DNA from: Ischnura elegans
Taxonomy: Eukaryota > Arthropoda > Insecta > Odonata > Coenagrionidae
NCBI RefSeq assembly: GCF_921293095.1
Contig: NC_060249.1
Coordinates: forward strand, 79,991,907-80,055,906
Length of the DNA: 64,000 nt
Reading direction: 5' to 3'
Part shown: positions 1 to 58,120 of the stretch, piece after piece
Position numbering within the stretch: the stretch's first letter is position 1
Layout: each line of letters opens with the position of its first letter
Position numbers and translations under genes: made by a program
The notes under the pieces: generated by a model
Database searches by the model: none
What the model was told of the DNA's origin: nothing
The model's input: only the letters and a program-made list of their open reading frames with translations

Positions 1-446
1 TCTCCCGCATAATTGACCACCCTTTATTATATTATTTAGGCCTTGATTCACCACCGTTGGCCGTGGTATGAAAGAACGACGGCTTCGCTCATCGGGGACA
101 CACGTTTTGGAAAATCTTCCCAGTCAGAATTAGCCATCGACCTTATTTACAAAATTGCAAAAACTTTATCAAGCTCTTATATTTTTGGTCTAAGTTGTTA
201 TTGTAAAGGTTGTTCGTCAAAAATCTAGGTTGATTCTTCAAAAAAATGGAAAAAAATTAATTAATACTAGGAAATGACACGTCATCCACATAAATTATTT
301 GGAAAGATTATTTTCGAGTCACATTAATATTTTATTTCAGTTTTAATAATGTTTAACCATGATCATGAAACATTTACACTTATATTACTAACTTAGCCTT
401 TAACTGGTTTGATGCCTTCAGGCGTGTAATAATCTTTTTTTTATCA
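1..446. other. intergenic, nothing recognised
   Basis: AT-rich sequence with no convincing coding potential, RNA gene or structured repeat on either strand. Confidence 0.5.
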
Positions 447-780
447 TGATCACTGGTCAACAATCCTAGGATTGGTTTGACGCAGCTCTCCACTCAGTTC
501 TCCTATCAGCTAATCTTTTCACACCTATTTAGACGTATTTCTTCTCTTTCACACCCTTCTTTATTTGTTCCATATATTTTGTTCGAGGTCTTCCTTTTCC
601 GTTCTTGCCATCCACTTGTCCCTCGACGATTGTCTTCATCAGGCCATCATGTCTCAAGATGTGGTCTATAAGGTTGTTCCGTCTTTTTGTTAAGGTTTCA
701 TGAGGCTTCTCCCCTCTCCTACTCTTCTTAGGACTTCTTCGTTACTAACTCGGTCGATCCATTTGATCTTCATCATCATC
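447..780 (-). mobile_element. RTE-like LINE 3' end, truncated copy 1
   Basis: Read on the minus strand this matches the copies at 52915-53440 and 57600-57965. It begins near 775 with codons for the KIKWIDRVSNEEVLRRVGE stretch, part of the C-terminal tail of RTE-type LINE polyproteins, then runs through several stops and shifts. It ends with the shared 3' sequence CAATCCTAGGATTG reversed near 460. A CATCATCAT-rich tract lies at the 5' truncation. The copy is dead and severely 5'-truncated. The clade is inferred from the tail motif and the ATG-repeat tails of the sister copies. Confidence 0.7.
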
Positions 781-926: not shown

Positions 927-1810
927 CAATAGGGTAGTTTCCTTCATCAAAGAAAACGAAAGGCATTGATTGCGATTCGTTGCCTAACATTAGTGTATTC
1001 ATTATATATTACTTGGTTTTAGAAATTCCATTTTATACGAATGTTAGTGGTCAATTTTAACCTCATTTGAAATAGGCAAGATTGGCACCCATGCGTTGCC
1101 ACCCCACGTGACGTCACAGGGATCTAGATGTATACGAATAGTCAGGAGTTTCACATCGACTGAGATTACCAATGCATGAATGTGGCACAGAACTCAGGGA
1201 AACATCTCTTAATATTCACCTATTAAAATTGCCTATGGTCGGAAAGTTTCCTTCGTTCGATAGGGTATTAATAATCCTTATTTAAGCAGGGTAGTCTGCT
1301 ATCTGCTAGCAGCCTGCATCGTATCTGTGCTCACTGCTCATAGCCTCGCACCAAGATGGCCTCACACGGCAGCAGCTGGAATCAGAATAACGTCTCACGG
1401 GCTTTTCCTTGCATTGAGTTCAGCATTCTTTCGGGCTGCATCCGCGTCCGTTGTCGAAGAACCACAACAGTTTCGCCAGCTCTCCTGCCAGCGTCCTCAG
1501 GTGAAGGATTCCTTCACCTGAGGACGCTGGCAGGAGAGCTGGCGAAACTGTTGTGGTTCTTCGACAACGGACGCGGATGCAGCCCGAAAGAATGCTGAAC
1601 TCAAGTAATCACCGCGGAAACCTGCGTACGAACATTTTCCTTGCATTCATAATTATCCGTCGCGTTTTCGCGCACTCGCAAATTTTCACTTTTCATTTAA
1701 TCGCGAAAAATAGATATCGTCATTTAAAAATCTAAAAGCGTGAAACACGTACTCCAGGAGTAATTATCTTTCGATTTTGGCAATTTAAAAAATTATAAAA
1801 CCATCCTATA
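927..1810 (+). mobile_element. TIR element family 1, copy A
   Basis: First of three copies (others at 37545-38205 and 44260-44932). It starts CAATAGGGTAGTTTCC and, in the sister copies, ends GGAAACCACCCTATTA, a 15 bp terminal inverted repeat with one mismatch; this copy's right end is eroded (CCATCCTATA). A CRE-like palindrome GTGACGTCAC lies in the interior (about 1109-1118) and is kept in all three copies. No coding capacity is seen, so it is a non-autonomous DNA-transposon-like element. It is interrupted by the palindromic insertion 1416-1634. No clear target duplication was found. Confidence 0.7.
1403..1647 (+). mobile_element. palindromic insertion 1 with 13 bp target duplications
   Basis: Insertion 1416-1634 is flanked by TTTTCCTTGCATT at 1403-1415 and 1635-1647. 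It sits inside TIR element copy A exactly where copies B and C run straight through, so the empty-site sequence is visible in the same window. It contains a perfect inverted repeat of 95 bp per arm (1414-1508 and 1510-1604, one central base) and then a 30 nt unpaired tail holding ACCGCGGAAACCTG before the right duplication. Related insertions lie at 6111-6243 and 52700-52855. It matches no family I recognise. Confidence 0.75.
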
Positions 1811-4050: not shown

Positions 4051-4170
4051 CATGACCACCTAGATACTCAGTATGAGTAGGTATTTGTTGGCCTATATCA
4101 CGAACACCTAGATACTCATACTCATACTGAGTATCTAGGTGGTCATGATATAGGCCAACAAATACCTACT
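4051..4170. repeat. nested inverted tandem structure
   Basis: Positions 4051-4079 (CATGACCACCTAGATACTCA...) are the exact reverse complement of 4119-4147. Positions 4076-4100 (AGTAGGTATTTGTTGGCCTA...) are the exact reverse complement of 4146-4170. The two stems cross in order, so the right half is the inverse of a roughly 50 bp unit repeated in tandem. The 18 bases between them (4101-4118) hold a further partial copy, CACCTAGATACTCATA. No target duplication is evident. Confidence 0.8.
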
Positions 4171-18611: not shown

Positions 18612-21600
18612 CTAATGAGGCAAAGACATGCATACTTAAAATTAACTTAACTTAATCGTGAAAGAACTAAAACTAGTTAGATAACTAAACAAGCAAACTC
18701 TAAGATATGACTTTGAATAACAGCTCAAAAATAGTGTAGCAACAAGTCCTTCAATTAAACATTGCATCCACGTTTACAGAAATTTTGAAGTAAAACCACT
18801 AAGCCATCATTGAAAATGCTAAAGCACAGTAGACCAAGAAATCTACACTGCGCAAATCCAAGAAATTACAATAATTTTCCTTAAGAAAGAATCAATAAAA
18901 GCTTTAGAAAATGTATACTTTACACATTAAGTCAGAAATACAGGTTACAAAATAAGCTCCAAAAAGTGTCAAATCTTTGTACTAAGTAACAGAAAGGGAA
19001 GACAGAAAAGGAAGAAGAAAGCGAAGGAGAAAGAAAAAACAAGGAGGAAGACAGAAAATTCAACTAAACGACCCGCCTAAAAATGTTGCAACTTCTGAGA
19101 AATTTCGCTAACGCTGCATTGTCAGGCAATGGTGAACATTCTTTTCCATTCCATTTTGCGAAACGAAGCGATCTCGTGGAGACGGTTCACGCCTTGAACG
19201 AAGCACGCGAGAGACCACTTCGAAGGAACTTTCCCCATCGCATTCAAGACTCGCTTTCGAACAGAACTGTCTGGGAGCCCATGTCGGACAGAGAAGAGAG
19301 AGTCGCACTCCAATCAAGAGAAGTCTGAAGGTCTAAAAATATTGCGGATACCGCAGAATCCGAAATAAGGAAAATTATGAGGCAAGCCACCACGGAAGCA
19401 ACCGTAGATCAATGAACAAGATGGTGGCGTCGCGACTGAGGCACGGGAACCAGAGGAAACTACTCGAGTGCGAGAGGAGAGGAATGATACAGAACACAAC
19501 GCAACAGCCCATCCTCCCACTCCCCCCGCAAAGGGAAACCGCGGAGAGATCAACGGACGCACGGGCAGTGAATATTTTCGACAAATATCTCGTTTGCGGG
19601 TGGTAAAACAGGTTCGTAAGTCAGACTAGAGACGAAGACGTGGTTCCAGAAAATGGCCGAGAAAGCTCTCCTCGTCGGCGACCTCGAAAAGTTGGAACTC
19701 GCGAACGTAATTGGAAGAAATAAAAATGCGTCAACAAGGCATCCGAGAAATCTGACAAAGAGCTGATGAGAAATGATTGGCACGAGGAAACTGGGGAAAT
19801 ATATTCAAATACGAGGAACTCCGCAAGAGCAAATCGATGTCTACCTGAGTCATCCAGAAAAAAACATAAATGAATTCTCGTCAATGAATGAAAGTATACA
19901 CGCTTTCAAAACAGACGTTGCCATGTGAAAAGAGACAAAGTAACTTTCTAACTATGAAACTTGATCTAAGAGTACATACGTGCTGATGGAAAGACATTAA
20001 GACGACAAAGGGCGAGGTTCATAAGCTGGGAAACAAAATAAAACCAATTAAAGAAAGGTGATAGGACCTCACGAGGCTAAATGAGCATCAATGTAAGCTG
20101 ATTGGGTAATGCCAATTTGGCTACATAAGCCAACTAGCGACCATAAAGCAGCTCAAATTTCTCTAGGCCCACTTTTGACCATGATAACCATTGAATGGAG
20201 TTAACATGGCTTCGATAAGGGCCAAGGTACATTGATTCCGCAGCTGTAAGTACGAACGACCATCCGTGATGGCTAAACGTCTATAGTCGAAAGCAACTGG
20301 GTTACTGATAGACAAGGGAAGGGCTTGCTACGGGCTGACTCAATGCCATGACCTACGAGAAAATTTACTGTGGAAAAGGAAAACGGGGAAAAGTACAGCG
20401 TGGAAGCTCGTAAATTTCTAAAATCAAATACAGCATTAAAACACCAACTATTGTCTGAGAAAAAAATTACGGGCGAGAAAAAGTAATGAAAGGTAGGGCA
20501 AACCAAATGAGAAATGCAAGTGCAGAATACTCCGTCACCTTTCGCGCAAAGGTACGCACGTTTGGCAAATGTTGCTGATGCATATTTAAACCGACTATGG
20601 AGATAGGTTCCGGGCATTAAAACATGAGATAGAAAAATCTAACCAACCAATACTTGCATCCATACCTTGCAAAGCGAGGAATCTAAATTTAGACGCAACT
20701 CCCCCGCAGAAGCGAGATTAACAAAACTAACGAATTACACTTAAGGCTAACCTATAGAGCGAAATTCCCTTCAGCATACGAATATATAAGATAGCCATAA
20801 TTTCCGAGACAGCACCAACCAAGAAGAAAGAACCATGCTAAAATGTTGTAGATTTCAACTCTAATGGCGGACTACGTTTCTCAATTATGCGGCGATTTAG
20901 CTATTTTACGTATTTTACCACCAACTGGAAAGCCCAAAACCTATGGGGCCTGCAAAATTAGGAGTTACGGTAGTGGCGACGGAAAACAAAGGAAAGGAGT
21001 GGGGAGAAATACACAATCGAAATATTTGAAGATTCCGAATCCACGAAAGGAGTACTCACCTCATCTTCGCTGGAGTCCGAATCTGAGTCTTGGGGCAAGG
21101 GAAGGGGTCGTGCACCCCTTGAGACGAGATCACGGGCCAGGGCCGACTGTGAACACGCTGCGGCAATCTGATAGGCAGTCATGCCGGCGTAAGTTGTGGC
21201 CTCGAGGTGAACAGGACACTGCTCAATCAGGAACTGTATAAGGCGCCTATTTCCCATCTCCACACCGTAGTGAAGAATCGTTCGCCCGCTCAACCCATCC
21301 TGAAAACACAGCGAAGGTAAGACCGTCATTGCGTGAAGATGACATGGTCGAATAACAGTAACACAGTAGAGGGAAATTAGCATGAACTTCGTGGAGGGAT
21401 CAAAATTTATATGAAAGTGGAAGCAACGAACAATATTTAGCTCCCGCAGCCACATTTAAAACATTTATAAGTATAAAAACCGGGACCGATGCCGTAACAT
21501 GAACCGTAACGTTAACAAGAAAAAAATTTCAGATTTAAGTCAAACACAATGACAGCCGCGAGATGCATTAATGAATAACCAGGGGCCAATTAATCCTGAG

Positions 21601-30600: not shown

Positions 30601-32706
30601 CACAGGGCACACTGATTTTGCCACAGTACAGCACTACATTGAACATTCGTCACCAAATGTGGTGAGATAACCTTATTTCCGAACCCACCATGGAATTGGA
30701 CTGTGGGGTCAGTATATCACTAAAATCCACATTTAAGAGAATACATCAATTAGGGGTTTTCCCATAAACGATGACTGTACGCATTTATGGTAACCGCGGA
30801 TGAGAATTTAATATCGAACACCGGCCATCATACGAGGAGATTCTCCGATAAACTAAGATTCAAACGCGACAAAGGGCATATTGATAGACAGTGACACGCG
30901 AAGGCCTTATGGAATGCAGGATTTAAAACGGATATTCGATGATTAAAAAAAACATTATAACGCCCAAGAAGTAATCAAAAATAATTATCAAAACATTCTT
31001 GGGCACAATTCCAAAAACCTCAGCGTATATATAGTAAAAATAGTGAGTGCACTGACACCAACTTCAACTGCAAAATACAGATCATTGGCAGGAGAAATGG
31101 GGGTATAAATAAACACTAGGCAAATATAGTCTAGGAGACAGCGTTAAGTAGTTGTTAATGTACTTTCATAATAAACTGACAACATTCCTAGCGATAATTA
31201 TAATCCCCAAATTTGGTCAAAACCAGCACAATTGCAAATACAGCAAACTTGAACAATATGACTACAGAATCAAGGTTCTAAGGAAGATAACGATGGGCAA
31301 TTACTAATGATACAATTCCACAATGAAATAATATACGGCAATAAAAATAAATTAACATTCTACAGCACAGCCACGTTGTTCCCCATATATGGCAGGAATA
31401 CTACTGAAGCAATTGAGAAATCACATGTCCTAAATAAAAAAACCGACTGAGAAGCCTCGACACCGGCTGCAAGATTTTTCGATTACCGCGGGGTTAACAG
31501 CGAAAAGCACTCTAAACAAATAGCAATATCAAAACATGGCAACAGCCCATCCATTCAACCCACAAAAACAGCATTGAATGAAATCGCCAGTAATTGAGTG
31601 GATGTAGAAACTTACGTCTCACGGCACGTTCACTAAAGTAATAACGGACATGTCACACCACGGGGAGCCCAACAGTACTATTGAATGAAATAATAACGAA
31701 AGAAGCCTCACCTGTCTCAAGTCATTCAGGATATCCAAGAAAATTGGATGTGGTGCCATGCGTATCAAACTATACACGACTTCAATGAAGCCATGAATGA
31801 TGGCCAAATGCAATTGGCTGCAAAAAAATAACGAAACACAATATTAATACTGAAATAAGAGCCAAACAAATGAGATCACCAAAATACAAGCAACTATTTA
31901 GCAAATATTAGGGTATATTATTTAGAAAAATTAAACACCATAAAACAAATGACGAACGTATCGCATAGCATGGCACAGTGGCGGAATGTTATCTTCAACA
32001 CGATAAATTTATCATTCCAGGACAATCGTTAAATTGATATAACTTTATCCAAATAAATTTTTAAAATTTATACTCACGTATCTCCGTCGTCATCTTGCTG
32101 AAAATACTTCTCCCAATCGAAACACGGCTGACATGATTCTTCCGATGGCAGCTCTGTTGATAAACTGTCCGAGTGAGAAACAACGTTTACATTCGTACAT
32201 CTTGTGCTTTCTTGCTGTAACTTAGGGGACACATTTAAGTTGTTGAGCGACGCATTTTTTAACGTTAAGTGACTGAAGGGCTCTTCGAGTTCAACATCCA
32301 CACCACTGTCAATCCTCATGAAGGATTTCTTGTCCTCCTCGCTTAAGTCCTGGACGCCAGAGTCTTTGAATTTTCTAGGGGACAAGTCTTCTGATAAACA
32401 ATGTTCGGACGACACAATATTGGCTCCTGATAAAAACCCTGAATCAGTCCGGCCAGAGTCGTATAACGAACACTTCCCACTGTCAGAGTAGCCCTTAGAG
32501 CTGGGTGAGGAAAAAGCATCACGCTTCGAGCTCACAAAACCCACATCTTGCTGAAATTTAGAAGCACTTTTCCACTGGCGCTGACTCTCTTCACATTCCA
32601 ACTGAGATGGTAATCCATGTGATAACGCCTGCGGCTGGCCAGATGCACGACCTGAAACCAAGTCGGAACCGTCAATATGGCCAATAGGATGCTGTCCTTG
32701 CCACAT
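18540..32706 (-). CDS. cact: cactus / IkappaB inhibitor of Rel proteins, whole spliced gene
   Basis: The coding sequence joins 32706-32078, 31817-31712, 30398-30152, 21980-21892, 21299-21060 and 18611-18540 (1,383 nt, 460 residues plus stop). In the fly pathway cactus holds Dorsal/Dif in the cytoplasm until Toll signalling causes its phosphorylation and degradation. Residues 1-208 form a Ser/Asp-rich arm with the degron DSGFLS at 88-93. Six ankyrin repeats span about 209-425: DTQLHLA, SPMHLA, DTPLHLAA, QTCVHLAA, RTILHYG and MTAYQIAA. Repeat 3 has the extended loop before DERNHDG found in cactus proteins. The C-terminus is acidic (DSDSDSSEDE, 428-437), a likely CK2/PEST region. Length is close to the roughly 500-residue fly protein. 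Each exon border has AG/GT and all phases match. The ATG at 32706 is the first inside exon 1 past a possible splice acceptor; an upstream coding exon cannot be excluded. Intron 3 is 8.2 kb. Identification is very secure; the last exon and 5' end are less so. Confidence 0.95.
18612..21059 (-). other. cactus intron 5
   Basis: 2,448 bp. The donor is GAG|GTGAGT at 21059 and the acceptor CATTAG at 18612. A purine-rich (GAAGAAG) tract lies near 18990-19050 and a somewhat GC-rich stretch with overlapping short frames at 19083-19880. No nested gene recognised. Confidence 0.65.
21060..21299 (-). CDS. cact: cactus coding exon 5 (ankyrin 5-6 and acidic tail)
   Basis: 240 nt, phase 0 at both ends, 80 residues (358-437). 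Acceptor TGTGTTTTCAG|GATGGG, donor GATGAG|GTGAGT. It encodes ankyrin 5 (SGRTILHYGVEMGN), the characteristic ATTYAGMTAYQIA of ankyrin 6, and then the acidic serine run DSDSDSSEDE, a strong casein kinase II-type cluster. In IkappaB proteins the equivalent C-terminal acidic region contacts Rel dimers and controls basal turnover. Confidence 0.95.
21300..21891 (-). other. cactus intron 4
   Basis: 592 bp, with donor AGG|GTTAGT at 21891 and acceptor TTTTCAG at 21300. Nothing else recognised inside. Confidence 0.8.
21892..21980 (-). CDS. cact: cactus coding exon 4 (ankyrin 4)
   Basis: 89 nt. The acceptor is TGTATTTGCAG|GACAAAC. Two bases complete the glycine begun in exon 3, and 29 further codons encode QTCVHLAAIGGNLDVLRHLV followed by GFGANVNAR, a textbook ankyrin repeat (residues 329-357). 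The donor is GTTAGT, slightly off consensus. Confidence 0.95.
21981..30151 (-). other. cactus intron 3 (8.2 kb)
   Basis: The largest intron, between donor GATG|GTAAGT at 30151 and acceptor TTTGCAG at 21981. It holds several GC-rich patches (about 23280-23560, 24600-24870, 26500-27000) in which long frames appear on both strands without recognisable protein, and a short hairpin at 28305-28343. No nested gene or intact transposon was recognised. The GC-rich patches could be enhancers or an internal alternative promoter. Confidence 0.75.
28305..28343. repeat. 18 bp hairpin in intron 3
   Basis: CCGTTCATACTGGAGTTC (28305-28322) pairs with 28326-28343 around a 3 nt loop CAA, with one mismatch. No flanking direct repeat was found, so it is not grouped with the palindromic insertions. 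Confidence 0.75.
30152..30398 (-). CDS. cact: cactus coding exon 3 (ankyrin 2-3 and loop)
   Basis: 247 nt, entered in phase 0 through acceptor TTCATAG|AGCCCC and left in phase 1 at GATG|GTAAGT. It encodes residues 246-327 and the first base of 328. Ankyrin 2 is SPMHLAVLTRQARIVRRLVV and ankyrin 3 is DTPLHLAARVGDVMCTKALL. A loop of about 24 residues ending CFPPSSIDERNHDG follows, the cactus-type insertion between repeats 3 and 4. The exon is strongly GC/CpG-rich compared with its introns. Confidence 0.95.
30399..31711 (-). other. cactus intron 2
   Basis: 1,313 bp between donor CAG|GTGAGG at 31711 and acceptor TTCATAG at 30399. AT-rich, with nothing recognised inside. Confidence 0.85.
31712..31817 (-). 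CDS. cact: cactus coding exon 2 (ankyrin 1)
   Basis: 106 nt. Acceptor ATTTTTTTGCAG|CCAATT; the first base completes Thr210, and 35 codons follow: QLHLAIIHGFIEVVYSLIRM, then APHPIFLDILNDLRQ. RMAPHP and NDLRQ closely match the conserved first ankyrin repeat of cactus and IkappaB proteins, so identity and frame are secure. Confidence 0.97.
31818..32077 (-). other. cactus intron 1
   Basis: 260 bp, with donor GATAC|GTGAGT at 32077 and a strong pyrimidine-rich acceptor at 31818. Nothing else inside. Confidence 0.9.
32078..32706 (-). CDS. cact: cactus coding exon 1 (N-terminal degron arm)
   Basis: Encodes residues 1-209 and two bases of codon 210. The ATG at 32706-32704 has A at -3. An ATG 24 nt further upstream is in frame but lies upstream of a likely splice acceptor (TGTCTTTAG ending at 32717), so the inner start is preferred. 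The segment is Ser/Asp/Glu-rich. DSG motifs lie at residues 75, 83, 88, 115 and 133; those at 75-80 (DSGKCS) and 88-93 (DSGFLS) fit the DSGxxS consensus bound by beta-TrCP/Slimb after phosphorylation. The exon ends in the acidic YFQQDDDGD leading into ankyrin 1. Confidence 0.93.
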
Positions 32707-33115
32707 CGTCACACCACTAAAGACAAGCAAACACTAATGAACGAAGCTAGCTACGCTAATACACGAGCTTCCAAAATGATGAAAGCAATCACGAAACTCC
32801 AAACATTCCCTCGAGATTACGAGAATATGATAAAAAAGCTAACGAAGAATGTAAAACGCAAAACTAAACAAATCCACGAAGATGGCTGGGATACACAATC
32901 GCAAAACTCAAAGGAAGTATTGCGAACCGTCGACCCAAGCACTGAACCTCATTTCACTTAAGCCACACGCAAACTGAACGAACAACTGACCGTTGATCAA
33001 GACACCTTCACCATGGCTCGCGTCTGACAAAATGATGAAGAAGCACTTCCTCCGTCGACGGATATAACGCGACCTTTCCACTCTCTCCCCGAGCGCTCGC
33101 GTCGCAGCGCATCGA

Positions 33116-37544: not shown

Positions 37545-38205
37545 CAATAGGGTAGTTTCCTTCGTCAAAGAAAACGATGGGCATTGATTGCGATTCGTTA
37601 CCCACCATTAGCGTATTCATAATACACAAATTATTTGGTTTTTGAAATACAGGTTTAGACGAATGGCAAGGGTCAAATTTTATCCTCATTTGAAAAAGGC
37701 CAGATTGGCGCCCATGCGATTCCACTCCGCGTGACGTCACAGGGACCTAGTTTCTACACGAGAGGATAGAAGTTATACATCGTCTGAGGTTACCAATGCA
37801 TGCATGAGGCACAGAGCTCAGGGAAACATGTCTTAATAATCACCTATTAAAACTGGCTAAGGTCGGAAAGTTTTCTTCGTTTGATAAGGTATTAATAAAC
37901 CTTTTTTAAGCCAAGCGCTACCATTCAGCAAGGTACTCAGCTATCCGCTAGCATCCTGCGTCCTATCAGCGCTCAGAGTCTCGATCAAGGTCACTTCACA
38001 AGGAGAGAGGGGGAACCAGAAATGCGTCGCACGGACTTTCCTACTTACGCGTCGCGTTTTTGCGCGCTTGAAATTTTTCACTTTTCATTTAATCGCGAAA
38101 AATAGATATCGTCATTTAAAAATCTAAAAGCGCGAAATACGTACTCCAGGAGTAATAATCTTTCGATTTAGGCAATAAAAAAATAATAGGAAACCACCCT
38201 ATTAA
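37545..38205 (+). mobile_element. TIR element family 1, copy B
   Basis: About 660 bp, from CAATAGGGTAGTTTCC to GGAAACCACCCTATTA. Very similar to copy C throughout, including CGTGACGTCACAGGGACCTA at about 37730-37749 and the AATCGCGAAAAATAGATATC stretch near the right end. There is no open frame long enough for a transposase. The 15 bp terminal inverted repeat has one mismatch. Target duplication not resolved. Confidence 0.75.
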
Positions 38206-49282: not shown

Positions 49283-50190
49283 ATCTACATAATACACTGC
49301 GAGCAATCTATATTGTGTTTGGCAGGGGATGCCCAACCACCAGCATTCAAGAGGATCCCCACATGCACACCACCCAGTCTTAAATTATTATGTGTATGAA
49401 AAAAAAATAGGTAAAAAATTTTGCAAAGGCAAAACTTGCCAGCAGTTAGTAACCCCTGCAGTAAATCTATGCAAGGTAAGAACATTGGAAAATGCAATAA
49501 GTCGTCCTTGCAATTGACGACTTTGATGTTATTAATCGAGATACCGTTGCTACCCCTGATGGTACGGAAAAGAATGACATACTACGAGATAGTACGTATA
49601 TCCTTCTTTATCTCCTATTTAATCTATCGTAATGGCCATAAACCTCTGTGAACGCAACTACATAATTTAGGAAGAGGTGGATTTTGATCGTGATCGCGGT
49701 GGTAATTCCATTAATGTAAAGAAGGAAAAAAAGAGGACCTGTAACTCATCCTTGGGCTACCTGTAACTCATCCTCAGGCTACCTACCTGAGGTAACTTGC
49801 TCGGTATCCAAGCAAATTCCATCCGAAATGACTCGATCCTCGCGATTGTTTAAAAATAACCATGATCCAACCTATTACGTGGTAATCTACACTATATGTT
49901 TGTAGCTCTGGAATCAGCTTAGAATGCGGAACCTTATCGAATGCCACCCTGAAGTCTAGAAATATAGCGTCAACTTGAACATGTACGTCACCCGCGGTTA
50001 AGATATCATGAACGAAGAGAGTTAGCTGGGTTCCACAAGACCTCCCTGTTCTGAATCCGTGCCGATCTTTTGCTAACAGCTTTTGGCTACCCACATGACC
50101 CATTATCGAACTGAAAATAATATGTTCCAAGATTTTACAAGAAATGGAGGTGAGTGAGATATGTCTGCAGTGATTCCCATTCGAGTTGTT
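49283..50190 (-). mobile_element. CR1/Jockey-type LINE remnant with reverse transcriptase
   Basis: The minus strand from about 50190 reads ISLTSISCKILEHIIF (RT motif 1 region), then HGFRTGRSCGTQL (motif 2) and VDAIFLDFRVAFDKVPHSKL (motif A, with its metal-binding Asp and the FDKVPH signature). The catalytic YxDD and C-terminal part are absent. About 450 bp further on, 49283-49310 has TCTACATAATACACTGCGAGC, the inverse of the family 3' terminus. The element is heavily deleted and inactive. A 22 bp tandem duplication (CTGTAACTCATCCT...GGCTAC) lies at 49739-49785. Confidence 0.75.
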
Positions 50191-52870: not shown

Positions 52871-52914
52871 TACTAAGGAAATAAAATAAAGTATATGTAA
52901 TAATAATAAATCAT

Positions 52915-53440
52915 CATCATTAGTCAACAATCCTAAGATTGGTTTGACGCAGCTCTCCATTTCTCTCTCCTATCCGCTAATCTCTTCATAGCTACATATT
53001 TATTCTCTTTTACATCCTTTATAACATGTCCTCCATGTTCATTCGGGGCCGTCCCTTGCCCTTTTTCCCTTCCACTTGTCCTTCAACGATTGTCTTCATC
53101 AGACCATCGTGCCTCAAAATGTGGCCAACTAAGTTGTCCCTTCTTCTGCTTAATGTTTTTAGGAGGCTTCTCTTTTCTCCTACTCTCCTTAGCACTTCCT
53201 GGTTACTCACACGGTCAATCCATTTTATCTTCATCATTCTTCGGTAGCACCACATTTCGAATGCTTCTACTCTTGACTTCTCTGCTGCTGTCAACGTCCA
53301 AGCCTCGCTTCCATAGAGAAACATACTCCATATGTAGCATCTGATGAATTGTTTCCTTACTTCTATGCTGGTATTTTCAGCTGTAAGAAGATTCTTCTTT
53401 TTGTAGAAAGCCCTCTTCGCCTGCGCTATTCTACTGTGAA
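52915..53440 (-). mobile_element. RTE-like LINE 3' end, copy 2 (best preserved)
   Basis: From about 53438 the minus strand is open for roughly 145 codons: QAKRAFYKKKNLLT, then a YGSEAWTLTAAEKSRVEAFE stretch, MWCYRRMMKIKWIDRVSN and LLKTLSRRRDNLVGHILRHD. This is the conserved C-terminal end of RTE-type LINE reverse-transcriptase proteins. Decayed sequence and the 3' terminus follow, ending in ATGATGATG repeats (52915-52922), the usual RTE tail. The RT and endonuclease domains are missing through 5' truncation. Confidence 0.8.
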
Positions 53441-55605
53441 ATAATAAATAAAATAAATAATAATAACTAAAAGATCATGAAAAAATAATCATGGAAATTG
53501 AAAAAACATCAATACTGTATAGTTTCTGTGTCTCACTAGAATTGAAATAAATTTAATACCTGATATATGACCGCTATAAAGGTAGAAATTAAAAGACAAA
53601 GTTACCAACGGAATACCGAGTGAAACTTCGAAGCAACATTTTGGCTATCTTGTCAGCTCGTGAACTGTGCCGCATGCGGCCTAAACGGGGAGAAATCTAA
53701 AAGTTATTTCATGAGAAAAAAATTCTCTACCGAAATTTTTCCGGAAAGGCAACGACAGACTTATCGCGTGAAATCTCAACTACGTAGTCCGTACCCCAAT
53801 CCGGTTCAGATATGATAAATGGCAGGTCGACGTGGCGACATCACACCCGTATCGGAAGTGTGTCAATTTCCTGACGGCCTCTGTTCCCGATAGCCACACG
53901 AAACGAGAGGCAAGGAAAAACTGGGACGCATTTCTTTATCTTGGGGAGTAGCGCATCTGGAATGTCATTGTAGCTGAACTAGGTAACAATACGGCCTCTG
54001 ATGGCGAATTAATTCTTCCTGTTACGAACTTCAGCGCTATAGAACCCTACAAGGTTCCGAATAAATCTCCGTACAGTTTTAACCCTACCAACAGCATCCC
54101 AGCCAAATATTATTTACTTCTCGAAATTCTATTTGTCTACACTTACTAGCATAGGGGTAAGCGCTGGAAAACATACTAGCGGGTTACAGAATTAAATTCA
54201 AGTCCGGGTCAATCCTCCGCAAACCCTACCGAAAAATCCTTACGGAGCACTTCTCTGACTGTTACAACGTCATGGGAAATCGCAGGTAATCCAGGGAAGG
54301 GAACTGCCTCGCTACTGAATGAGTAAACAACACTTAATAACGGCTTAGACAGATGGGTCTGGTAGTGACACTCGAACTTCAACTACCCTTACGGTTGCAG
54401 CATTTACAAAGAGATTATTGACACTAAGTAGGATACAACGTGGTCAGAACAAAGGTAGATAACAACGCTTTAACTGTAACACAGAGCCTGAAAATTAAAT
54501 ATTTAGTACCATTCTTGGTGAAAATCCTCTCCCTTCGAATCTGTCAGCTAATACCAACCATGATAAATGAGAAAGGACAATGGAATAGCAATTAGGGGAA
54601 GGGAGTTGACAGCTAAGGTCATTTGGCCGCCTTAAGATAGATGTGAGTATAAAAGTAGTGTGTGTATGTAATGGAAAAAGAGTGGGCAGAAATCCAACTC
54701 CGAAAGATATGGCAGCCAAATCTGAAGTTTCCCGCACAATTCGAACGATATAGCGGCAGATATCAGCACATTCTGAAATGCGGTTCACATGTTTGCTTCC
54801 TACGAGAAATATATTTTGGTAGGTTGAATTTTGGTTTTTGTGCTACAGCCCGTTGTTTCATTTTAAACAGAGCAATATCTGACCCAGCAAGAAATTCTTA
54901 GGTTGGTAATTCTGATTCTCCATCGGGTCACACTCCGCGTTTTAGCTGACACATATAGGCATGAGTCCTACATCGTCAATCAGAGAATGCACGGTTAATT
55001 TCTTCGAAATCCAAGAAGATATTCAGGATGTGAACCGGAACCGATTCCGGATGGGATACTCCAGTATTCAATTCTGTAAACCTTCATTTTTAAAGCCTTA
55101 CTTGGTCAATAGAAGAAGAGACAAAAAAATATAGACTCAAGCAGAGATGGGGAAATCACACTTATCTTACCGGAATTTAAACCTAAAACTTGAAAAGTTG
55201 GCCCAAATCTTTAAGGTAAAAGTATCGATTAAACTGTTTCGCTACAAGAAAAAACAAACCAAATTTAAATCTAAAATATATCTATTGAGGGAGGAAAAAT
55301 GAATTATTTAAGATTTCCGTAGCAAAATCTAAGAAATGAAAATTCACTTTGCGTAGATATTCCACGTAAATACTCTATTCCTCACCATGGTAACCCTGAG
55401 AACAAAATAGCCTCGTCGAAGCCACAGTCGGGAATAAAATAATAGTGTGCAATGTCAAAAGTGAATTTTCATATCTTATTTCGTGGTTTCACAAAGTTCA
55501 TCCGTAAATATTAAACAGTATTCCAGAATCAATGTTCTTTATGTACGCCTCTGGATACACCTGACAATTATTTTCAGTCTTTCGTCCATTTATTTATTTC
55601 TAGTG
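53441..55605. other. intergenic, nothing recognised
   Basis: Begins with an A/T simple-sequence stretch (53436-53470). The rest is unique, with no gene or mobile element recognised. Confidence 0.45.
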
Positions 55606-57383: not shown

Positions 57384-58120
57384 ATCTCATTTAGTGGCGG
57401 ATCTATGGGGGTGCTCAGGGGACTATAGCTCTCCCCCCATTTGGTCGAAATACACACTAGATAAAATCGAAATTTTTGGGGTTGCCACTTTGCGCAAATT
57501 ATTTAGTTATATTTTCCGATATACTTACCTACTTTAACGAATTTAAATTTAAATAAGCTCTAAACTTAAAGCTTATTTGACACGCTTTTGGTACGTTAAA
57601 ATCCAGTGGTGCTACAGAAGAATGTTGAGGATCAAATGGATTGACCGAGTGAGTAATGAGGAAGACTTAAGAGGAGTAGTAGCGAAGAGAAGCCTCATGA
57701 AAACCTTAGTAAGAAGACGGAACAAACTTTTAGGCCACATTTTTAGACATAATGGATTGATGAAGACAATCGTCGAGGGGCAAGTGGATGTCAAGAACGG
57801 AAAAGGAAGACCTCGAACAAAATGTATGGAACATGTAAAGAAAGATGTGTAAGAAAAGAAATACGTAGGTGTAAAAAGATTAGCATATAGGAGAATTGAG
57901 CGAGGAACTCCGCCAAGCAATGTTAGGATAGTTGACCAGTGATGATGATGATGAAGATGACAATCCAGCAGCAGATCCAGAAAGGGGTTATCCAATTAAT
58001 ATGGGAATTCAATTTACACTAGATAGAATGGTTATTTTGTGCGGACCCCCACTACTGCTGGGAGGTTACCCCTGACTTGGCCCCCTTTTTCCCTATCCTG
58101 GATCCGCCACGGATCTCATT
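57384..58120. mobile_element. hAT-like element carrying a nested LINE
   Basis: Element 57392-58112 is flanked by exact ATCTCATT duplications (57384-57391 and 58113-58120). Its ends share GTGGCGGATC as an inverted repeat (57394-57403 and 58101-58110). An 8 bp duplication and CAGTGGCGGATC-like ends fit hAT. No transposase is present. The RTE-like fragment at 57600-57965 lies inside, so the host element inserted first. Confidence 0.75.
57594..57965 (+). mobile_element. RTE-like LINE 3' end, copy 3 (nested)
   Basis: The plus strand reads WCYRRMLRIKWIDRVSNEED, then LLGHIFRHNGLMKTIVEGQV and GKGRPRTK, matching copies 1 and 2. It then runs to GTTGACCAGTGATGATGATGATG at 57931-57953. AATCCAG occurs at both junctions (57600-57606 and 57961-57967), a plausible 7 bp target duplication. 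Open for about 85 codons, so relatively young, but fully 5'-truncated. Confidence 0.8.

What the first reader, a model, noticed from the sequence alone, without database searches (positions are those of the whole stretch)
1403..1647. 95 bp perfect palindrome inserted with a 13 bp target duplication
A palindrome this long and perfect is normally unstable. Here it sits in a 219 bp insertion with direct 13 bp flanks, inside a repeat whose other two copies show the uninterrupted site. The insertion ends with a one-armed 30 nt tail. The shape (palindrome at the 5' end, single-copy 3' tail, 13-15 bp duplications) suggests reverse-transcribed DNA that snapped back and copied itself, rather than a cut-and-paste element.
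Basis: seen in the sequence. Interest (0 to 1): 0.8.

Follow-up and report, generated by a model that had tools for sequence, protein, structure and literature searches.

The report
Double-ended insertion by Penelope-like retroelement
The perfect DNA palindrome is a very short copy of a common, recently active Penelope-type jumping gene, apparently written twice, once from each side of the cut chromosome, which offers a way to test how this little-understood class of retroelement inserts itself.

Summary
In detail: two 95-nt arms (100%, 1-nt spacer), a one-armed 30-nt tail and a 13-nt target duplication, in a host repeat whose other two window copies lack the insert. It is a copy of a Penelope-like element (PLE); the tail has 243 matches in this 1.72-Gb genome. 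Longer copies encode a reverse transcriptase and a probable GIY-YIG endonuclease; the arm fits a minimal hammerhead fold. Of 96 distinct tail-selected insertions, 61 have the same head-to-head shape. The tail-less arm ends about 31 nt short of the element end in 59 of 61; target duplications reach 8 nt in 56 of 61. In 10 of 61 the tail-less arm is longer by 40 nt or more, so it is not a plain snap-back copy. A studied PLE enzyme nicks and extends both strands from two start sites separated by such a tail (PMC11167929). I conclude that each nick primed its own cDNA and the two were joined head to head. Inverted, tailed PLE copies are already known; I found no statement of double-ended priming as their origin, but key papers were not held. 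Snap-back with later trimming is the main rival.

The parts
1403..1415 (+). left copy of the 13-nt target-site duplication (its last 2 nt also pair with the right arm: microhomology)
   Evidence: uninterrupted site in the 44260 copy
1414..1508 (-). tail-less arm: antisense PLE cDNA from start site A (family reference about 1594) to the inferred RNA 5' end (reference about 1500)
1509..1509 (.). head-to-head junction, 1-nt spacer
1510..1604 (+). tailed arm, the part shared with the other arm: sense PLE sequence from the inferred RNA 5' end
1515..1555 (+). minimal hammerhead-ribozyme fold (CUGAGGA, stem II 1526-1531/1538-1543, GAAA, inferred cleavage after 1552)
   Evidence: core pattern alone is not beyond chance; no Rfam hammerhead match
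1605..1634 (+). one-armed 30-nt tail; ends at start site B (family 3' end, GAACA)
   Evidence: alignment to the published PAc RNA
1635..1647 (+). right copy of the 13-nt target-site duplication
927..1402 (+). host repeat, part left of the insert (copies at 37545 and 44260)
1648..1809 (+). host repeat, part right of the insert

Best explanation
The palindrome is a minimal insertion of a Penelope-like element made by double-ended target-primed reverse transcription. The element's enzyme nicks both target strands about 13 nt apart. Each free 3' end primes reverse transcription on PLE RNA at one of two internal start sites: site B on one strand, giving the arm with the tail, and site A about 31 nt upstream on the other, giving the arm without it. 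In the window both cDNAs ran to the 5' end of the RNA (about 30 nt after the start of a TATATAA sequence seen in longer copies), giving products of about 125 and 95 nt. Their 3' ends were joined head to head and filled in, which makes a palindrome between target duplications. Shown: family, anatomy, target duplications, one tail per insertion wherever both ends were seen in the arm-selected sample, large differences in arm extent in both directions, and excess agreement of inner ends. Inferred: transcription start, order of steps, the joining step, and that one RNA (or sister RNAs) served both arms.
For: Family: L010, a same-family copy, runs into an ORF with reverse transcriptase (Pfam RVT_1 3.2e-15) and a C-terminal GVYQVPCSCGKWYIGET stretch; a 64% identical relative matches GIY-YIG weakly (E 0.0042, below cut-off). 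The last 130 nt align to the published PAc RNA (score 57; 1000 letter shuffles mean 29.8, highest 56) and the 3' end falls at PAc ORF position 116, within its mapped start site 111-118 (PMC11167929, three of four parts read). Double priming: 104 tail-selected loci give 96 distinct insertions, 61 with an adjoining inverted arm, whose outer end lies at reference 1590-1602 of 1625 in 59 of 61. Target duplication of at least 8 nt in 56 of 61, against 5 of 300 random flank pairings. Among 20 loci picked by arm instead of tail, 13 show both outer ends and exactly one bears the tail in 13 of 13. Tail-less arm longer by 40 nt or more in 10 of 61, tailed arm longer in 11 of 61. Inner ends coincide within 20 nt in 37 of 61 (permuted mean 12.1, 0 of 20000); 37 of 157 inner ends fall in one 13-nt bin, 1495-1507. 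Haplotypes at two markers (1468 and the A-run beside it) agree in 12 of 15 pairs covering both (shuffle mean 3.8, 0 of 20000 reaching 12). Same plan in two arrays of related PLEs: head to head, 15- and 13-nt duplications, one tail each. PAc nicks and extends both strands and its tail is the stretch between two start sites (PMC11167929).
Against: Inner ends coincide far more often than chance even away from the putative transcription start (20 of 37 within 20 nt, permuted mean 4.3): snap-back predicts this directly, double priming needs a shared RNA 5' end. Shared template is only partly borne out: the two agreeing markers were picked after looking, and at the other variable sites inside the arms (edge positions 1589-1596 left out) a non-majority letter is shared by both arms in 3 cases and differs in 17; over all sites 11 shared and 138 differing. 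Later mutation may explain these. Large asymmetries could be later deletions of palindrome centres. In both arrays the tail-less arm has fewer units (2) than the tailed arm (4). PMC11167929 reports no start-site difference between strands in vitro. 35 of 96 insertions show no adjoining inverted arm.
Confidence: 0.74

Rival explanations
1. Snap-back: one target-primed cDNA (tailed) folds back at its 3' end and copies itself; copying halts about 31 nt short of the end because that stretch is covered by enzyme or still paired to RNA; the palindrome centre is later trimmed.
For: Inner ends coincide within 20 nt in 37 of 61; two markers agree between arms in 12 of 15 pairs; many junctions show overlaps of 1-13 nt (25 of 61) or filler, some of it copied from the element; about 5 nt at the centre of the C13 array; in both arrays the tail-less arm is the shorter.
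Against: Tail-less arm longer than tailed arm by at least 8 nt in 24 of 61 and by at least 40 nt in 10 of 61, which needs a later deletion each time; spacers of 0-1 nt (L034, window) leave little room for a hairpin loop; the constant halt coincides with a start site known from biochemistry; in two arrays the tail-less arm ends at that same kind of site two units from the centre although the other arm has four units.
Confidence: 0.19
2. Self-priming on an antisense PLE transcript, as proposed for rotifer Penelope elements (PMC3846280, passages and Discussion read).
For: Explains head-to-head order and palindromic junctions.
Against: The copied sense arm could not extend past its template, yet it carries the extra tail (tail-less end at 1590-1602 in 59 of 61; one tail in 13 of 13 by arm selection).
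Confidence: 0.03
3. A DNA transposon or MITE with long terminal inverted repeats.
For: Inverted arms and target duplication.
Against: Arm extents differ from copy to copy, one arm lacks about 31 nt, copies run into a reverse-transcriptase ORF and are 5' truncated.
Confidence: 0.01
4. Assembly or library fold-back artefact.
For: Perfect palindromes are a common form of such artefacts (general knowledge).
Against: 61 palindromic insertions with a shared outer boundary, 56 with their own target duplication; the tail is one-sided.
Confidence: 0.01

Closest known systems
Penelope elements of Adineta vaga (Pen2a_Av and others, PMC3846280; passages and Discussion read)
   Same: Inverted pLTR head to head with the direct one, 31-bp tail on one of the inverted pLTRs, palindromes at the inverted junction, target duplications of 8-10 bp in several copies.
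   Different: Described there for longer elements and read as self-priming; here the insert is only the RNA 5'-end piece, target duplications centre on 13 nt, and two primings are favoured.
Poseidon of Anolis carolinensis, PAc (PMC11167929; three of four parts read)
   Same: Two adjacent internal start sites bounding the tail, minimal hammerhead next to them, nicking and extension of both strands; RNA alignable over ribozyme and start region.
   Different: Biochemistry in vitro, with no strand difference in start site reported. The genomic products here show one tailed and one tail-less end.
LINE-1 twin priming (5' inversions; recalled, and seen in a search listing, PMC2837659)
   Same: Two primers from one target site, inverted 5' segment, target duplication.
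   Different: In twin priming (recalled) the inverted segment lies upstream of the direct one on the RNA; here both arms start about 31 nt apart and overlap, giving a palindrome.
Metazoan retrozymes (PMC7229834, passages)
   Same: Short repeats with a type I hammerhead.
   Different: Retrozymes are tandem repeats of about 300 bp with canonical hammerheads; here the arms are head to head and belong to a PLE family with a minimal hammerhead, the kind that PMC6155905 (passages) describes for PLEs.

Membership tests
Penelope-like element (Penelope/Poseidon type) | Reverse transcriptase in one ORF | tested here: met
   RVT_1 E 3.2e-15 in L010; solved relatives by sequence include group II-like RTs (E 0.0008) and telomerase (E 0.008). 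That the motifs are of PLE type is recalled, not tested.
Penelope-like element (Penelope/Poseidon type) | C-terminal GIY-YIG endonuclease | tested here: inconclusive
   No Pfam match for the L010 C-terminus, no NCBIfam match; a 64% identical relative matches PF01541 at E 0.0042, below cut-off.
Penelope-like element (Penelope/Poseidon type) | Tail of 30-40 nt between two start sites, on one end | tested here: met
   Tail-less outer end at 1590-1602 in 59 of 61; one tail in 13 of 13 by arm selection (12 of the 13 tail-less ends at 1591-1602, L116 at 1379); 2 of 2 arrays. That these ends are start sites is inferred from PAc.
Penelope-like element (Penelope/Poseidon type) | Minimal hammerhead ribozyme in the pLTR | tested here: inconclusive
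   Fold kept in 3 of 3 families: 11 pairs all standard, 4 with changes on both sides, shuffles as high in 7 of 500. Core pattern alone not beyond chance, no Rfam hammerhead match, activity untested.
Penelope-like element (Penelope/Poseidon type) | Tandem units giving pLTRs | tested here: inconclusive
   Constant-period units in related PLEs (2517 and 2530); not seen for the window's own family in the stretches fetched.
Penelope-like element (Penelope/Poseidon type) | Target-site duplication, 5' truncation | tested here: met
DNA transposon / MITE | Fixed, symmetric terminal inverted repeats | tested here: not met
   Arms differ in extent and one lacks the tail.
Metazoan retrozyme | Tandem (head-to-tail) repeats of about 300 bp with canonical type I hammerhead | tested here: not met
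   Opposite-strand arm pairs are head to head in 25 of 25 (100 of 428 arms listed); the fold is minimal, without a proper helix III.

The most novel reading that the evidence does not exclude
Double-ended priming is the normal insertion route of PLEs: a two-subunit enzyme holds one RNA, each subunit starts at a different site (A or B, about 31 nt apart), each uses one of the two nicked target strands, and the two cDNAs meet head to head. Tailed palindromic copies, from 0.2 kb to multi-unit arrays of about 16 kb, are then direct products, and the tail is the signature that each start site was used once.
Probability: 0.45. Interest if true: 0.78.

Novelty: new member of a known kind. Interest (0 to 1): 0.55.

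Why it matters
PLEs are a third class of eukaryotic retroelements, and how they complete insertion is open: PMC11167929 says later steps are yet to be validated. This genome holds hundreds of matches to one young family whose junctions record both ends of each insertion, so strand use, start-site choice, template sharing and joining can be read directly. It would also explain how a normally unstable perfect palindrome arises repeatedly.

Tried and rejected
Rfam: the insert gave 21 matches, 19 of them microRNA families, all below gathering scores and due to the palindrome itself; no hammerhead; L010 gave none either. The hammerhead core pattern has 3 matches in the window (the two arms and 19763), and 10 of 100 shuffles have as many. 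Plasmid collection: two weak, irrelevant matches. The fold of arm plus tail is not unusual (z -0.90). Cut-and-paste element, retrozyme, antisense self-priming and assembly artefact were considered and set aside as stated.

Selection and dropped rows. The first 39 fetched copies were the best matches to arm plus tail (40 of 490 candidates scored), so short direct arms are under-represented among them; the next 64 were the exact tail matches listed (100 of 243 listed) that were not yet held. Hence a tail on the direct arm is by selection in the 104; only the arm-selected 20 test it. Merging copies of one insertion took 104 loci to 98 and two more, L047 and L094, to 96. L062, L083 and L107 have inverted pieces that do not adjoin the direct arm and count as 'no adjoining arm'. 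L049 and L072, and L066 and L100, share flanks and may not be independent. Of 51 arm clusters not yet held only 20 could be fetched: 13 show both ends, 5 a tailed arm only, 2 a tail-less arm only. A variant of the reference at 1481 cut some alignments short, so x = 1482 of L014, L023 and L024 is really about 1480 (read by eye).

Full report
What is there. The window carries a 219-nt insert (1416-1634) between two copies of a 13-nt target sequence (1403-1415 and 1635-1647). The insert is a perfect palindrome of two 95-nt arms with one spacer base, plus 30 nt that occur only on the right. It interrupts a repeat with two other copies in the window, both without the insert; one of them keeps a recognisable empty site.

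What family it is. Searching the window's own genome (1.72 Gb, 110 contigs, plainly a eukaryote) with the right arm plus tail gave 490 candidates, of which 40 were scored; 24 of these, the window's own included, are 100% identical over all 125 nt. The tail alone has 243 matches with at most two mismatches against none for the reversed pattern; an arm pattern has 428. Longer copies of the same family run upstream into an ORF with a reverse transcriptase and a C-terminal stretch that looks like a GIY-YIG endonuclease. That label is from memory for this family; a 64% identical relative matches the Pfam model only at E 0.0042, below cut-off. The last 130 nt align with the RNA of PAc, the Penelope-like element studied with purified protein (score 57, 1000 letter shuffles mean 29.8, highest 56). 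The arm fits a minimal hammerhead: across three PLE families of this genome all 11 proposed pairs are kept and four change on both sides; sliding the partner by one to three columns leaves 21-53% of the cells paired, and 7 of 500 shuffles reach the observed values. With three sequences, no Rfam match and a core pattern that chance can give, this supports the fold but proves no activity. PMC6155905 (passages) says that PLE hammerheads are usually minimal and lack helix III.

The same shape many times over. I collected 104 loci with the tail, the window included. After merging copies of one insertion 96 remain, and 61 of these have an inverted arm adjoining the direct one. The outer end of that inverted arm lies at reference 1590-1602 in 59 of 61, about 31 nt before the element end at 1625; exceptions are L040 (1548) and L068 (1563). 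A target duplication of at least 8 nt is present in 56 of 61, median 13; random pairing of left and right flanks gave 5 of 300. Because these loci were chosen for the tail, I also looked at loci chosen for the arm. Of 428 arm matches 100 were listed, in 74 clusters: 25 opposite-strand pairs, all head to head, 1 same-strand pair and 48 single arms. Of 20 such loci fetched and not held before, 13 show both outer ends, and exactly one of the two bears the tail in each.

What the two arms say about mechanism. Let x be the inner end of the tail-less arm and y that of the tailed arm. The tail-less arm is longer by at least 8 nt in 24 of 61, about equal in 17, shorter in 20; by at least 40 nt it is longer in 10 and shorter in 11. 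All 10 of the former have target duplications, of 11-18 nt. In L012 the tail-less arm has 315 nt that the tailed arm lacks, and the tailed arm has the tail that the other lacks. Neither arm can therefore be a plain copy of the other, unless sequence was deleted afterwards. Yet the arms are not independent: x and y agree within 20 nt in 37 of 61 (12.1 on average when the pairing is permuted, 0 of 20000 permutations as high), and in 20 of 37 (average 4.3) when ends near 1490-1515 are left out.

Do the arms share a template? At position 1468 and the A-run beside it the arms agree in 12 of 15 pairs that cover both (permuted mean 3.8, 0 of 20000). I picked these two markers after seeing the variants of the first 40 loci. 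The exceptions carry rare alleles (1468 G, seen in two arms; an A-run of 17, seen once). Against this, at the other variable sites, with the edge positions 1589-1596 left out, both arms share a non-majority letter in 3 cases and differ in 17; over all sites the script counted 11 shared and 138 differing. Mutations after insertion would differ between arms, so this does not refute a shared template, but it leaves the claim open.

Where the arms stop. Of 157 inner ends (96 direct, 61 inverted) 37 fall in one 13-nt bin, 1495-1507, which is 25-37 nt after the start of a TATATAA sequence at 1470-1476. I infer that this is near the 5' end of the RNA. The window's arms end at 1500 and 1501; they would be run-off copies from the two start sites to the RNA 5' end. 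That would explain why the palindrome is nearly without spacer: both cDNAs ended at the same place.

Link to biochemistry. Frangieh and colleagues (PMC11167929; three of four parts read) report that the purified PAc protein cuts and extends both strands of the target, that reverse transcription starts at two internal sites, and that the tail is the sequence between them. They saw no difference in start site between strands. The genomic copies here show one tailed and one tail-less end per insertion. That coupled use of the two sites is the added point.

The same plan at large scale. A search with the reverse-transcriptase part (150 of 2837 candidates scored) found tandem, head-to-head arrays of related PLEs: on C13 two units pointing left and four right (period 2517), on C19 four left and two right (period 2530). 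The C13 centre is a palindrome, 99.6% over 735 nt with about 5 nt in the middle; the C19 centre was not fetched. The outer ends show one tailed and one tail-less end in both, with duplications of 15 and 13 nt. Unit numbers rest on the assembly, and in both the tailed arm has more units. A second small family (query from L015) gave 5 inverted arms beside 40 scored places (of 1860 candidates), all 5 head to head, ending at query positions 79-95 of about 126.

Mechanism. Most likely: both nicked strands prime reverse transcription, one at site A and one at site B; the cDNAs run to the RNA 5' end or stop before; their 3' ends are joined, with overlaps of 1-13 nt in 25 of 61 junctions, flush in 6, with 1-56 nt of filler in 30. 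The main rival is snap-back of one cDNA with later trimming; it predicts coincident inner ends well but needs deletions for the reverse asymmetries and gives no reason for the constant outer boundary.

Comparison with what is known. Inverted pLTRs with a one-sided tail and palindromic junctions were described in rotifers and read as self-priming on an antisense template (PMC3846280, passages and Discussion); that model does not add the tail to the sense arm. My searches listed no title or abstract, and the passages I read contain no statement, that gives double-ended priming as the origin of these copies; three key papers are not held, so I claim only that I did not find it. The insert itself is an ordinary member of a known class; the value lies in what the family shows about the insertion route.

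Noticed in passing
G000:C13 about 13452093-13468504 and G000:C19 about 59909943-59926186 (ends in L134-L137, C13 centre in L133): Arrays of related PLEs in head-to-head order (2+4 and 4+2 units of about 2.5 kb, open frames of 838 and 868 codons), each looking like a single insertion with one tail and a 15- or 13-nt target duplication; suggests multimeric or circular RNA templates.
   Followed up: partly
window 20958-21455 (-) and 32074-32733 (-): An ORF with ankyrin repeats and another, without a Pfam match, that reminds me of insect Cactus/I-kappa-B (recalled, not tested): perhaps exons of one gene on the minus strand.
   Followed up: partly
window 20089-20226 (-): Match to the SNORA16 H/ACA snoRNA family (45.1 bits, gathering 35).
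   Followed up: no
window 49783-50190 (-): Fragment of another retrotransposon's reverse transcriptase (RVT_1 4e-10).
   Followed up: no
window 443-776, 52910-53237, 57622-57949: A repeat in three copies (the other two 77% and 83% like the first); the 53019-53474 ORF looks like the C-terminal part of a LINE polyprotein (by eye; no Pfam match).
   Followed up: no
window 4076-4170: Self-complementary stretch (95 nt, 88% like its own reverse complement), possibly a small MITE.
   Followed up: no
L048, L077, L085, L091, L110, L111: Six loci with the same short PLE copy and the same 3' flank (three compared on both sides): an insertion carried along by another amplified repeat.
   Followed up: partly
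window 1597-1602 and 1630-1634 (inferred start sites A and B): Both inferred start sites carry the same GAAC motif (GAACTC, GAACA).
   Followed up: no
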